Positions 4,002-7,883 of a stretch of DNA of 8,890 bases are shown one piece after another (the stretch's first letter is position 1; the number at the start of each line of letters is the position of its first letter). A model generated the notes under the pieces. The model was not told the origin of the DNA, did no database searches, and worked only from the letters and a program-made list of their open reading frames with translations. Both the position numbers and the translations under genes were made by a program. Source of the stretch: an uncultured Anaerolineaceae bacterium (GTDB lineage Bacteria; Chloroflexota; Anaerolineae; Promineifilales; Promineifilaceae). The stretch is from assembly GCA_937967805.1 (NCBI GenBank), contig CALBTC010000301.1, positions 1 to 8,890 of the forward strand, written 5' to 3'.

Positions 4002-4589
4002 TTACATTTCTGCTCTTCCCCACGTTTGAATGAACGATTCTGGCTCGACGCCCAAACCGTGTGCAATGCGATTGATATAGTTGAAATAGCCAATCACCTG
4101 TACTGCATCATGGATGGCGCGGTCATCAAAGCCATGTTGGCGCAGCGCGTCTATGTCGCCGGGGGCCATCTCATGCTGGCGATTTGTGAGCCCGGCCGCA
4201 AATTTACAAAGCGCCATGTCTGCAGGAGCCAGCGGGGCTGTGCGCCAATCGCGGACCAATGCGTGAACATACGCATCAGCTTGTTTGTCATTGGGAATGT
4301 CGGCTGCGATCTCGGCCCGGAGATCGTGGGCATGTGCCTGGTGTCAGTAATGGCAATTGTTTTCCACAGAAACGACCACCGCCAACATTTCCCGCTGCGT
4401 GCGTGTCAGCGGCGACTCCCCCATCATCAGCGTCTGATAAAAGCGGATACTGTCCTTCAGCGCCATCTCGTTGACGCTCATAATTTGCACGATGTTCCAG
4501 ATGCGGCCCGCTCGTTTGATGGCCGCATTCAGCTGCCGCTTCAGCAAGCCAGTCGCTTCTTCCAGGTAAATCTGTTTGATCCAGGCCAT
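4002..4589 (-). CDS. AhpD/CMD-type peroxidase-related enzyme, probable selenoprotein (CxxU)
   Basis: Read through one in-frame TGA (4346-4344), this is a single 195-residue protein of the carboxymuconolactone decarboxylase / alkylhydroperoxidase AhpD superfamily, 'peroxidase-related' type. Residues 1-81 ('MAWIKQ...', 'ESPLTRTQREMLAVVVSVENNCHY') and 83-195 ('HQAHAHDLRAE', 'FAAGLTNRQHEMAPGDIDAL', 'VIGYFNYINRIAHGLGVE') together give the expected length and all usual blocks. The redox centre normally reads E-x-x-C-x-x-C-x-x-x-H. Here it is E76, C79, H80, Y81, TGA at 82, then H86, so the TGA replaces exactly the second cysteine. The frame is the same on both sides and the downstream half is undamaged, which argues against decay. 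Selenocysteine at 82 is the simplest reading, supported by a hairpin just downstream. The enzyme would reduce peroxides through a C79-U82 pair. The start has AAGGAG 7 nt upstream. It lies 85 bp after the FAD oxidoreductase gene on the same strand. Confidence 0.8.
4307..4326 (-). promoter_or_regulatory. Candidate bacterial SECIS hairpin
   Basis: On the minus strand, CGATCTC (4326-4320) pairs perfectly with GAGATCG (4313-4307) around a 6-nt loop CGGGCC. The loop starts 25 nt after the TGA (4346-4344), with G at its second position. Bacterial SECIS elements are short stem-loops within the coding region just after the UGA, with a small apical loop carrying a G near its start, at about this distance. 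It is the clearest hairpin directly following the TGA. Confidence 0.65.
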
Positions 4590-4606
4590 CCCGACTCTCC
4601 TTCTTC

Positions 4607-4629: not shown

Positions 4630-4649
4630 TTCTCCCACTTAAATAATTG

Positions 4650-4698
4650 GACACAGATTTTTGTTTTATCTGTGTCAATCTGTGTTTATCTGTGTTCT
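4650..4698. repeat. ATCTGTGT short repeat cluster with hairpin
   Basis: Three units of a 10-bp pattern ending in ATCTGTGT lie at about 4667-4696. Together with GACACAGAT (4650-4658) they form a 9-bp inverted repeat with ATCTGTGTC (4668-4676), loop 9 nt. The cluster spans the stop codon of the FAD oxidoreductase gene on the minus strand, so the last residues of that protein (NRTQINTD) are encoded by the repeat. The hairpin could be a weak terminator for that gene, although only an AT-rich stretch and no real T-run follows. Confidence 0.6.
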
Positions 4699-6348
4699 AT
4701 TTTCTTTTAAATTTCGTTCTATGCGGCGGCGCAGCTTGGCAGGCCATTTGTCCGGCTCTTCGGATGGGTACACTTCCAAAGGCGGACCATTTTGCTGGAG
4801 CAGGTCGCTCATTTTGCGGCCCAAAATTTGTCGCGCCGTCATCAGGCCAGAACTGGTAGCGCCAGCCACGCCGTGCCCCGCCGTGGTGCTGGCCCCGCAC
4901 AGCCACAGCCCGGCGATCTCCGTTTTGTTTTTGAAGGCCCACGGACCCACCTGGAAGCGGCGCTTGTCGATGCCGTACAGATTGCCCCGCGTGGCGTTGA
5001 GATAATGCTTGTTGCTCAGCGGCGTGCCCAGCTCCTTGAAGACCACATGCTGGCTAAATCCCGGCACGCGCTTGTCGATATTGGCCAACATGCCGGCGGT
5101 AAGCTTTTCTTTGAGCTCCTGGTATTCCCACTCCCGGTCACCTGACGGCTGGTCGGCCCATTTAGCAAACGGCTCATAGTTGACAAAGGCAAATGCCTCC
5201 AGCGTGTGGTGCCCGCTGTGCATTTTGGACGGGTCTTTGAGCGTGGTCACCGTCAGAAACATCCCCTCCGGCTGGAAATCCTGCACCACTTTGTCTGTCA
5301 GGCCATCGGCATAGATGCCGTCTACGTCGCTGTGGTTGTAAAACCAGTAGTTGCCCGAATCCAGCCCGGCAGCGCGCAAATCCATGTCTACGGCCATGAA
5401 CAGGCTGAGGGCGGAAGTGGAATAGCTTACCTTGTCCAGCTTACGCTGCAATTTGCCGCTCAGGTGCTCGCGGCCCACCAACTGGCCAAACGTCACCTCC
5501 GGATCGGCATTGCTAACAACGTGCCGGGCGGCAATTTCCGTGCCGTCCATCAGGCGAACGCCGCGCACTCGTTTGGCATCATCCAGCAAGATGTGTTCGA
5601 CGCGGGTTTGCAGGCGCAGCTCGCCGCCGGCCCGCTTGAGGGCGCGGGCAAAGGCGCGCGGGATGGCAAAGGCGCCGCCCACGGGGTAGAAGCCGCCGTC
5701 AAAATAATGATGGGTGACGCCCGCGTGCAGCGGCGCGGAAACCTGCGATGGCGGCAGGCCGTGGTCGCCGGATTGGGCCGACAAAATGGCGCGCAGCACC
5801 GGATCAGAGACGTAATGGTTGATGAGGTCCGCGCCTGTTCGCAAAGCCCAGCGCAGGAGGTGGCGGGCGCGCCAGGGCAAAGTCAGGGCATCGCCCAGGC
5901 CGCGCACGCGGCCCAGCAGGCGCACCTCGTCCATGAGCTGCTGGCACATGCTCAGGTAGCCGTCGATGCCTTTGGCTTCTTGAGGGAAACGTTCTTTAAG
6001 ACGTTCGGCAAATTTTTCGCGCCCCTTGGGGATGTCGAATTGCTCCTCACCAATGAAGACGTGGTCGAAGCCGTCGGGGTTGATTTCGCAGAAGGCCAGG
6101 TCGGCGGAGATGCCCAATCCTTCATAGATACGGCGCATCTGGCCGCCGGGGCCGATTCCGCCGATGTAATGCACACCGGGGCTGAATTTATAGCCGTCCA
6201 GGGTGAAGGAGTGGGTCCAGCCGCCGGGTACGTCGTGCTGCTCCAGAACGAGGACTTTTTTGCCGGCTTGAGCCAGGGGTACGGCCGTACTCATTCCCCC
6301 AGCTCCCGAGCCAATCACAATCACTTCATACGCTTCGTTTGCCATCAT
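4675..6348 (-). CDS. Phytoene desaturase / retinol saturase-like FAD oxidoreductase
   Basis: A 557-residue flavoprotein of the CrtI/CrtISO/RetSat family. The N-terminus holds the FAD-binding Rossmann fingerprint 'VIVIGSGAGGMSTAVPLAQAGKKVLVLEQ' (residues 9-37, shown for its GxGxxG and terminal E36). It is followed by 'PGGWTHSF' (41-48) and 'PGVHYIGG' (57-64). The H-Y-x-G element is typical of carotenoid isomerases and all-trans-retinol 13,14-reductase-like members rather than of CrtI proper. The C-terminal FAD motif 'GLWLCGASTTAGHGVAGA' is at about 480-497. It probably saturates, desaturates or isomerises a polyene substrate; no other carotenoid gene is visible, so the substrate is open. Two adjacent ATG codons (6348, 6345) can start it, and the ribosome site is weak (GAGAAG directly upstream). 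A -10 of extended type lies at 6385-6377. The last residues come from a repeat. The stop is TGA, with an in-frame TAA two codons later. Confidence 0.88.
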   Translation of the reverse strand: MMANEAYEVIVIGSGAGGMSTAVPLAQAGKKVLVLEQHDVPGGWTHSFTLDGYKFSPGVHYIGGIGPGGQMRRIYEGLGISADLAFCEINPDGFDHVFIGEEQFDIPKGREKFAERLKERFPQEAKGIDGYLSMCQQLMDEVRLLGRVRGLGDALTLPWRARHLLRWALRTGADLINHYVSDPVLRAILSAQSGDHGLPPSQVSAPLHAGVTHHYFDGGFYPVGGAFAIPRAFARALKRAGGELRLQTRVEHILLDDAKRVRGVRLMDGTEIAARHVVSNADPEVTFGQLVGREHLSGKLQRKLDKVSYSTSALSLFMAVDMDLRAAGLDSGNYWFYNHSDVDGIYADGLTDKVVQDFQPEGMFLTVTTLKDPSKMHSGHHTLEAFAFVNYEPFAKWADQPSGDREWEYQELKEKLTAGMLANIDKRVPGFSQHVVFKELGTPLSNKHYLNATRGNLYGIDKRRFQVGPWAFKNKTEIAGLWLCGASTTAGHGVAGATSSGLMTARQILGRKMSDLLQQNGPPLEVYPSEEPDKWPAKLRRRIERNLKENRTQINTD

Positions 6349-7345: not shown

Positions 7346-7359
7346 ATGAGGGTTGTGCG

Positions 7360-7382
7360 TGTAGCCGCGGATTCTTTCCGCG
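7360..7382. repeat. CCGCGGATTCTTTCCGCG hairpin repeat, copy 3
   Basis: The stem CGCGGA (7366-7371) / TCCGCG (7377-7382), loop TTCTT. The 23 bp are identical to 4607-4629, about 2.75 kb away. Confidence 0.7.
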
Positions 7383-7408
7383 CAGGTATAGAGGCCGAAA
7401 CCCCGCCT

Positions 7409-7467
7409 GTCATCCCCGCGCAGGCGGGAATCCATACCCCCTGGACCCCCGCCTACGCGGGGGTGAC
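7409..7467. repeat. REP-like 26-bp inverted repeat
   Basis: The arms at 7409-7434 (GTCATCCCCGCGCAGGCGGG...) and 7442-7467 (...CCCGCCTACGCGGGGGTGAC) are reverse complements at 22 of 26 positions, separated by 7 bp. Conceptual translation gives the well-known artefact 'VIPAQAGIH', a sign of this widespread intergenic repeat type. It abuts the stop codon of the TPR remnant (7470-7472), where it may form the transcript end. Confidence 0.75.
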
Positions 7468-7469
7468 AA

Positions 7470-7883
7470 TTAGAGGTGGTCCAGCGGTTCGGCGGCGTCT
7501 ACCTGGCCCCAGTGGTAGCCCATGTCTACGGACATGGTTTGGGCGCGGGTGACCTCTTGACGGGCGATGGTGGGGTTGCCGCCGGCCAGGTGGGCCCAGG
7601 CGAGGGCGATGCGAATGTCGGCTTCGAAGATGCGGTAGCCGCCGTCCGAGAGACCTGACAGGTGGCCCTTAGAGTTTGCGGCTGGCGAGGAGGGTTGAGT
7701 AAATTGTTTTAGATCGATTGCAAGATTGCCTAATATTCGATGACATTGGCTCAATTTGTCGGGCATCCAGCGACAAAGCTTCTTCCAAGTTCCCTTGCAG
7801 ATTCTCTGACCAAGCAAGCCATCCTATTGCTCTCACTTCCACCCTTTTGATTCCACTTTGCTGTGCCAATCTTAATGCCTCTG
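7470..7883 (-). pseudogene. Remnant of a TPR-repeat protein gene, frameshifted
   Basis: Reading leftward from the MITE, the frame encodes 'EALRLAQQSGIKRVEVRAIGW' and continues 'LAWSENLQGNLEEALSL', a TPR-like helix pair. Family-like sequence then continues in a different frame ('CHRILGNLAIDLKQF'). After a junction near 7640-7675 containing ACCTGTCAGGT (7655-7665), the C-terminus follows: 'GGYRIFEADIRIALAWAHLA', then 'MGYHWGQVDAAEPLDHL' and TAA 7472-7470. That ending resembles the last repeats of large TPR/NB-ARC-type proteins of Chloroflexota. There is no proper start, the frame changes, and the 5' side is cut by a MITE at 7884-7976 whose removal joins 'KVTE' to 'ALRLAQQ' in frame. The 5' part is AT-rich and the 3' part GC-rich, so two remnants may have been joined. 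Confidence 0.6.

What the first reader, a model, noticed from the sequence alone, without database searches (positions are those of the whole stretch)
4002..4589. Probable selenoprotein: AhpD/CMD-family enzyme with an in-frame TGA at the second redox cysteine
Seen: one minus-strand frame from ATG 4589 to TAA 4002 is interrupted by a single TGA (4346-4344). Residues before it end in E-N-N-C-H-Y, residues after it start H-Q-A-H. In the peroxidase-related AhpD/CMD family this position is the second Cys of CxxC, with E three residues before the first Cys and a His four after the second. Both halves keep full family-like sequence with no frameshift. Seventeen nt after the TGA begins a perfect 7-bp stem with loop CGGGCC (4326-4307), matching the position and form of bacterial SECIS elements. 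Known: AhpD-like and CMD-domain selenoproteins with CxxU motifs have been reported from marine metagenomes. Inference: this is a selenocysteine enzyme that standard gene calling would split into an 81-residue and an 85-residue fragment.
Basis: partly seen in the sequence, partly recalled or inferred. Interest (0 to 1): 0.93.

Follow-up and report, generated by a model that had tools for sequence, protein, structure and literature searches.

The report
Selenocysteine AhpD-like redox enzyme gene
This stretch holds a gene of the AhpD-like redox-enzyme family whose second active-site position is written as an in-frame TGA that is predicted to be read as the rare amino acid selenocysteine; the same TGA, and in most cases a matching predicted RNA hairpin after it, recur in relatives from many bacterial phyla, so it is a well-supported new member of an already known selenoprotein family.

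Summary
In detail: one minus-strand frame (4589-4002) carries a single TGA at codon 82, the second position of CxxC. Comparison strongly supports a selenoprotein. In a genome scan, all 63 of 64 loci that cover the site have TGA there and a Cys codon at 79. Just after the TGA, 77 of 88 distinct genes pass the published bacterial SECIS rules (synonymous-codon controls: mean 28, maximum 37), with compensatory stem changes and a loop Arg codon that is CGT or CGG in 70 of 70. Of 50 relatives' genomes, 46 have selA and 43 selB over cut-off. In a Planctomycetota class, 13 of 13 genomes with the TGA gene have selA, against 119 of 235 others; in an Anaerolineae-type class the link is not significant. 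The window's own genome is not held, so its machinery is untested, and its hairpin alone is only marginal. The family is known ('AhpD-like', COG2128/TIGR01926, CxxU; Sargasso Sea 2005). One reader detail is wrong: the conserved Glu is E67, not E76. New here: this Chloroflexota-type member, few Cys forms in this branch, and two Cys forms in genomes without a selA match. Function is inferred.

The parts
4002..4589 (-). AhpD-like (peroxidase-related, TIGR01926) predicted selenoprotein gene, 195 residues with U at 82
   Evidence: AlphaFold2 model mean pLDDT 96.1 (Cys in place of Sec), closest PDB folds are the peroxidase-related proteins 2prr, 2pfx, 3c1l, 6k40, 2oyo
4344..4346 (-). in-frame TGA, codon 82, predicted Sec codon (second position of CxxC)
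   Evidence: TGA in 63 of 63 covering loci of the genome-contig scan
4307..4326 (-). SECIS-like hairpin (predicted): 7-bp stem, loop CGGGCC, 24 nt between TGA and loop
4353..4355 (-). Cys79 codon, first position of the CxxU motif
4332..4334 (-). His86, invariant in A1, position of the relay His (His55 of PA0269 / His137 of M. tuberculosis AhpD)
4347..4349 (-). Tyr81, invariant in A1, position of relay Tyr50 of PA0269
4389..4391 (-). Glu67, at least 90% conserved in A1, position of relay Glu36/Glu118
4597..4600 (-). GGAG, ribosome-binding-like sequence 7 nt before the ATG
   Evidence: read directly

Best explanation
The gene belongs to the peroxidase-related AhpD family and carries, at the second CxxC position, an in-frame TGA that is predicted to be decoded as selenocysteine with the help of a predicted hairpin just downstream, so that the product is likely an enzyme with a Cys79/Sec82 redox pair that would reduce peroxides or disulfides. 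Shown here: the frame, the TGA, its conservation, the family, the conservation of the predicted hairpin beyond coding constraint, and Sec machinery in most relatives' genomes. Inferred: the window's host has the same machinery; SelB with Sec-tRNA binds the hairpin and reads UGA as Sec; Sec82 acts as the attacking selenolate, helped by a Glu67-Tyr81-His86 relay, and Cys79 resolves it into a selenenylsulfide. Substrate and electron donor are untested.
For: TGA at column 82 and TGY at column 79 in 63 of 63 covering loci (64 found; L064 is partial), from Chloroflexota, Planctomycetota, Verrucomicrobiota, Fidelibacterota (Marinimicrobia), Actinomycetota, Acidobacteriota and SAR324/Deltaproteobacteria; none of the six scan patterns favours TGA and one would match only Cys forms. 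Across all 148 loci mapped (four duplicates included): 135 TGA, 12 Cys, 1 not covering. bSECIS rules of PMC13188914 (section 5): 77 of 88 distinct genes pass, synonymous-codon null mean 27.8, maximum 37 in 100 sets. The windows starting at +0 and +15 after the TGA have the strongest structure signal of those tested along the gene (mean z -0.95 and -1.18; next -0.62). Stems of 6 or more bp in 70 of 88 genes, 18.7% in shuffles. Covariation, e.g. pair +21/+34: CG 43, TA 14, GT 3, TG 2, unpaired 3 of 65. Loop G at +26 in 88 of 88, G or U at +27 in 86 of 88. Loop Arg codon CGT/CGG in 70 of 70, against 50 of 149 Arg codons elsewhere in the same 94 contexts, near-copies included. Sec machinery in the genomes of 50 of the 64 loci: selA over cut-off 46 (control 1 of 14), selB 43 (control 2 of 14), tRNA-Sec 45 (control 5 of 14, so less specific); all three in 39. 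The genome of L001, the window's closest neighbour in the tree, has all three (G001). Class of G038 (a Planctomycetaceae record): 13 of 13 TGA-gene genomes have selA over cut-off against 119 of 235 others, Fisher p = 2.4e-4 (codons read). Two Cys forms, G147/L100 (TGT) and G535/L131 (TGC), lie in genomes with no selA match. Relay residues E67, C79, Y81, U82, H86 have exactly the spacing of PA0269 Glu36, Cys48, Tyr50, Cys51, His55. Loss of the AhpD-like protein DR_1765 made D. radiodurans more sensitive to H2O2, and variants in its two CxxC Cys complemented much less well (PMC8945050, passage seen, reporting Zhao et al.); that 6k40, which matches here, is this protein is inferred.
Against: The window's own genome is not held. 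The single hairpin is only marginal by itself (931 of 20,000 shuffles; 20.8% of shuffles pass the rules). Some genomes with the TGA gene lack machinery over cut-off: G033 and G047 lack selA and selB (G047 has one borderline tRNA hit of 50.6 bits), G041 has only tRNA-Sec, and 4 of 49 TGA-gene genomes in the class of G002 (Anaerolineae-type) have no selA match, so the association there is not significant (45 of 49 against 205 of 249, p = 0.14). Most are MAGs and completeness is not given. 11 of 88 genes fail the SECIS rules and 15 of 88 have under 5 consecutive pairs in both registers. Paralogue group II passes in only 14 of 27 (expected 5.4) with a mean MFE z of -0.08, and ten distant Cys forms have a mean MFE z of -0.62, not far from -0.83 in the TGA group, so MFE in that window does not by itself separate Sec from Cys genes. 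No protein or activity data.
Confidence: 0.93

Rival explanations
1. The TGA is a sequencing error or the first step of gene decay (pseudogene).
For: Single window of unknown source; reads not available; stop inside an otherwise intact frame.
Against: The same codon is TGA in 63 of 63 covering relatives across several phyla, and apart from one stop at the C-terminal end of the matches in L001 and L026 it is the only in-frame stop in them; the hairpin is conserved beyond what the protein requires.
Confidence: 0.03
2. The host reads TGA as tryptophan (code 4 or 25), so residue 82 is Trp.
For: 19 of 113 database relatives are listed with W at column 82; one of them, P0004, is on record with a contig of 199 kb and its DNA could not be looked at.
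Against: The W entries look like table-4 calls of the same TGA: P0044 (W) is 94% identical over 137 residues to L011, which has TGA. The upstream FAD gene ends in TGA (weak, since TAA follows soon after). Trp would abolish the redox motif, and would not explain the hairpin or the selA link in the class of G038.
Confidence: 0.02
3. It is a selenoenzyme, but its main job is not peroxide or disulfide reduction; for example reductive dehalogenation, as by the AhpD-fold debrominase Bmp8.
For: Bmp8 (6ohi, 6ohj) is in the same fold neighbourhood (ranks 35-37); that Sec is used for reductive dehalogenation in deiodinases is recalled, not tested.
Against: Much closer folds and sequences are peroxidase-related AhpD proteins; all five proton-relay positions are kept.
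Confidence: 0.1
4. UGA is a real stop and the 81-residue N-terminal product is the functional one.
For: An 81-codon ORF ends there.
Against: The downstream 113 codons stay conserved with the family and the hairpin follows the stop; taken alone, the 81-residue half is below the Pfam CMD cut-off (18.9 against 23) and the 113-residue half has no Pfam match.
Confidence: 0.02

Closest known systems
AhpD-like selenoprotein family (COG2128 / TIGR01926, CxxU; example MCB9421940.1; Sargasso Sea 2005, 'AhpD-like 1' of the GOS survey 2008, reviews 2022 and 2026)
   Same: Same family model (TIGR01926 over cut-off), same CxxU motif with Sec at the second position, SECIS-like hairpin downstream.
   Different: This member is from a Chloroflexota-type contig by the placement of this one gene; its sequence was not compared with MCB9421940.1, which is not held.
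Cys peroxidase-related AhpD proteins of known structure (2prr, 2pfx, 3c1l, 2oyo, D. radiodurans 6k40)
   Same: Fold (TM 0.83-0.86 by query length), CxxC region.
   Different: Cys instead of Sec; 23-31% identity over the fold alignment.
M. tuberculosis AhpD / P. aeruginosa PA0269
   Same: Five proton-relay positions with identical spacing (PMC3141380; A1).
   Different: Distant in sequence; M. tuberculosis AhpD (1gu9) ranks only 50th in the fold search and has the motif elsewhere in the chain; Cys instead of Sec.
NF041238 AhpD_rel_CFYUT (seleno)protein
   Same: Related family that also has a CxxU motif.
   Different: 55.6 bits, far below its cut-off of 175, so not this family.

Membership tests
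AhpD-like selenoprotein (COG2128/TIGR01926, CxxU) | Family model TIGR01926 over its curated cut-off | tested here: met
   129.6 bits, cut-off 81.8, with C at position 82
AhpD-like selenoprotein (COG2128/TIGR01926, CxxU) | In-frame UGA at the second position of CxxC, conserved in relatives | tested here: met
AhpD-like selenoprotein (COG2128/TIGR01926, CxxU) | bSECIS: loop 3-9 nt, stem 4-16 bp, G in the first two loop positions, spacing 16-37 nt, MFE at most -7.5 | tested here: met
   Window: 7-bp stem, loop CGGGCC, spacing 24 nt, -10.1 kcal/mol for +7..+50, though 20.8% of synonymous shuffles also pass; family test 77 of 88
AhpD-like selenoprotein (COG2128/TIGR01926, CxxU) | Sec machinery (selA, selB, selD, tRNA-Sec) in the same genome | not testable with these tools
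   Own genome not held. In 50 relatives' genomes: selA 46, selB 43, tRNA-Sec 45 over cut-off, all three in 39; selD not searched
AhpD-like selenoprotein (COG2128/TIGR01926, CxxU) | Cys homologues aligned at the Sec position | tested here: met
   P0019, P0036, P0042, P0070, P0073 and loci L100, L131, L134-L141, L150, L151 have C there
AhpD-like selenoprotein (COG2128/TIGR01926, CxxU) | Selenium present in the protein | not testable with these tools
   needs 75Se labelling or mass spectrometry
NF041238 AhpD_rel_CFYUT | Score over the curated cut-off | tested here: not met
   55.6 against 175 bits
AhpD-type thiol peroxidase (works like) | Glu/Cys/Tyr-or-His/Cys/His relay spacing -12, 0, +2, +3, +7 | tested here: met
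   E67, C79, Y81, U82, H86
AhpD-type thiol peroxidase (works like) | Peroxidase activity | not testable with these tools
   no assay possible

The most novel reading that the evidence does not exclude
In this branch of the AhpD-like family selenocysteine is the standing state: Sec is carried across at least seven bacterial groups, and the few Cys forms inside it are reversions that arise when a lineage loses the Sec machinery, sometimes leaving a fossil SECIS hairpin behind (L100: TGT in a genome without a selA match, with the same GGCGAAGGTCTTCGCC hairpin as its TGA sisters L117 and L147).
Probability: 0.4. Interest if true: 0.45.

Novelty: new member of a known kind. Interest (0 to 1): 0.32.

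Why it matters
It is a clear case where gene calling loses an active-site residue: of 113 database relatives 80 align only downstream of the Sec site and 19 carry W there. It adds a well-supported Chloroflexota-type member to the AhpD-like selenoproteins. It also shows a predicted SECIS hairpin that is kept in two registers while the protein under it changes from DLRAEV-like to DFGLES-like, and it gives natural Sec/Cys pairs (for example L040 with P0036 and P0042, 72-73% identical) for testing what selenium buys this enzyme.

Tried and rejected
Conserved neighbourhood: tblastn of eight window genes against 128 fetched loci (flanks of at most 8 kb, often about 1.5 kb) found only AhpD (127 loci); no other window gene recurs near it at E <= 1e-15, so the upstream FAD oxidoreductase is not supported as a partner. 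Class of G002 (Anaerolineae-type): selA is so common (246 of 298 over cut-off) that the link with the TGA gene has little power there (p = 0.14); the class of G038 was used as a second test. MFE alone for the window's hairpin: not significant. Rfam (gathering scores) and tRNA scans of the window: nothing. Fossil hairpin in L100: its MFE alone is not significant (19% of shuffles as stable); distant Cys forms pass the SECIS rules in 4 of 10, expected 2.7. selD was not searched. Papers: for PMC13188914 passages and the whole of section 5 were read; for PMC9312934, PMC2398784, PMC1088965, PMC1794560, PMC3141380 and PMC8945050 passages found by search terms; the start of the abstract was seen in the listings; all others in search listings only. 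A search for selenoproteome with Anaerolineae found no paper; selenoprotein with Chloroflexi and AhpD found one (PMC1794560).

Full report
Observation. The minus-strand frame from ATG 4589 to TAA 4002 gives 195 residues with one internal stop, TGA at codon 82 (4346-4344). The context is NNC79-H-Y-U82-H-Q-A-H86. A GGAG lies 7 nt before the ATG. The hairpin at 4326-4307 is as described: seven pairs, loop CGGGCC, 24 nt between TGA and loop. With C at position 82, the protein scores 129.6 bits against TIGR01926, peroxidase-related enzyme (cut-off 81.8), and matches Pfam CMD (40 bits, cut-off 23).

Is the TGA conserved? A scan of one genome per species found 64 loci. In all 63 that cover the column the codon is TGA, with TGC or TGT at position 79. 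Adding loci from two class-wide searches, 148 loci were mapped, four duplicates included: 135 TGA, 12 Cys, 1 not covering. Of the 84 matches listed in 298 genomes of the class of G002, 70 were fetched and read at the codon: 59 TGA, 11 Cys; ten of the Cys ones are distant (27-33% identity), the other is L100 (40%). Protein databases mishandle the gene: of 113 relatives, 80 align only downstream of column 82, 19 show W, 5 show C, 5 are gapped there, and 4 show G, R, D or S. The W entries are best read as table-4 calls of the TGA: P0044 (W) is 94% identical to L011 (TGA); the DNA of the W entries themselves was not seen.

Is there a SECIS element? The bacterial model (PMC13188914 section 5) asks for a 3-9 nt loop, 4-16 bp stem, G in the first two loop positions, 16-37 nt from the UGA, and MFE at most -7.5. 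Among 88 distinct genes (three with N dropped), 77 pass; 100 sets of synonymous-codon shuffles pass 27.8 on average, at most 37. A repeat without the window and with per-gene codon use gave 76 of 87, expected 30.4. Sliding the test along the gene, the windows starting at +0 and +15 stand out (mean z -0.95 and -1.18; the next is -0.62; windows over the TGA itself were skipped). Stems of 6 or more pairs occur in 70 of 88 genes, 18.7% in shuffles; 15 of 88 have under five consecutive pairs. The stem exists in two registers: 65 genes fit i+j = 55 at least as well (mostly DLRAEV-like), 23 fit i+j = 54 better (mostly DFGLES-like). Pairs change together, e.g. +21/+34 as CG 43, TA 14, GT 3, TG 2, unpaired 3 of 65. 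Loop position +26 is G in 88 of 88 and +27 is G or U in 86 of 88. When the loop codon is Arg it is CGT or CGG in 70 of 70, although only 50 of 149 Arg codons elsewhere in the 94 contexts are. A second Anaerolineae-type paralogue group is weaker, 14 of 27 (expected 5.4, mean MFE z -0.08); 13 loci of the class of G038 pass in 8 (expected 4.6); distant Cys forms pass in 4 of 10 (expected 2.7), but their mean MFE z of -0.62 is not far from the -0.83 of the main TGA group, so the rule-based and covariation evidence counts for more than stability. For the window alone the hairpin is only suggestive: 931 of 20,000 shuffles reach 7 bp there.

Does the machinery go with it? The window's genome is not held. 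In the genomes of 50 of the 64 loci, selA is over cut-off in 46 (one more is cut by a contig end), selB in 43, tRNA-Sec in 45 and all three in 39; the controls are 1, 2 and 5 of 14, so the tRNA model is the least specific. The three Actinomarina genomes carry a diverged selB-like gene (189-193 bits, below the cut-off) beside selA. G033 and G047 have neither selA nor selB over cut-off, and G041 has only tRNA-Sec; completeness is not given for these genomes. In the class of G038, a Planctomycetaceae record, selA is over cut-off in 132 of 248 genomes; all 13 with the TGA gene (E <= 1e-25) have it against 119 of 235 others (p = 2.4e-4, codons read). In the class of G002 (it also holds the Ardenticatenales record G005; here called Anaerolineae-type) selA is over cut-off in 246 of 298, and the association is not significant (any selA match: 45 of 49 against 205 of 249, p = 0.14). 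Two Cys forms sit in genomes with no selA match: L100/G147 and L131/G535; L131 is diverged and has no Cys at column 79.

What does the protein look like? The AlphaFold2 model, with Cys for Sec, is confident (mean pLDDT 96.1) and closest to the peroxidase-related AhpD structures 2prr, 2pfx, 3c1l, 6k40 and 2oyo (sequence search). In alignment A1 (43 sequences) C79, Y81, position 82 and H86 are invariant and E67 is at least 90% conserved. Their spacing equals the relay of PA0269 (Glu36, Cys48, Tyr50, Cys51, His55) and M. tuberculosis AhpD (Glu118, Cys130, His132, Cys133, His137) in PMC3141380. The inferred mechanism is attack by Sec82 selenolate and resolution by Cys79; that the second Cys is the attacking one in AhpD is recalled. 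A D. radiodurans AhpD-like protein protects against H2O2, and variants in its CxxC complement much less well (PMC8945050 passage).

Where does it belong? In a tree of 146 rows the window pairs with L001, a Chloroflexota MAG (SH-aLRT 95), inside a Chloroflexota-rich part of the tree; 130 Sec rows and 16 Cys rows need at least 6 changes, and 4 are forced by starred branches (quick method, root not inferred). The family is known: AhpD-like, COG2128, CxxU, 27 Sargasso Sea sequences (PMC1088965), 299 in GOS with 902 Cys homologues (PMC2398784), 2 in bacterial genomes in 2006 (PMC1794560), and listed with COG2128 (2022) or TIGR01926 (2026) under the same example MCB9421940.1 in reviews. So this is a new member of a known kind. 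The GOS count shows that Cys forms are common in the wider family; their scarcity seen here concerns the branch near the window. The more novel possibility, that Sec is the standing state of this branch and its Cys forms are reversions, is open.

Noticed in passing
L101-L119 and L142-L149 (e.g. G346, G293, G311, G069, G227, G263, G240, G096): Many Anaerolineae-type genomes hold a second, 34-46% identical TGA-containing AhpD paralogue; at least eight genomes of the class search hold both forms, so one host may make two selenoproteins of this family.
   Followed up: partly
L100 (G147): A Cys (TGT) form in a genome without a selA match that keeps the same hairpin as its TGA sisters L117 and L147; a possible fossil SECIS, though its stability alone is not significant.
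   Followed up: partly
L117 and L096 (G096): Two TGA-containing AhpD genes in a genome with no selA match: either an incomplete genome or a lineage that lost the machinery.
   Followed up: no
L014, L016, L017 (Candidatus Actinomarina): Streamlined marine Actinomarina genomes of about 1 Mb carry the TGA gene, selA, tRNA-Sec and a diverged selB-like gene (189-193 bits, below the cut-off) right beside selA.
   Followed up: partly
4640-4700: Short AT-rich repeat (ACACAGATAAACACAGATTGACACAGATAAAA) between the FAD oxidoreductase gene and the AhpD gene; it also encodes the last residues of the FAD protein.
   Followed up: no
7346-7552: ORF translating to PVIPAQAGIHTPWTPAYAGVT, which resembles a widespread intergenic repeat (recalled); probably not a gene; no Pfam match.
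   Followed up: partly
7470-7869: Two overlapping minus-strand ORFs without Pfam matches that look like remnants of a repeat-rich regulator gene (impression, untested).
   Followed up: partly
1-270: DUF6958 protein at the window's left edge (Pfam 74.6 bits).
   Followed up: no
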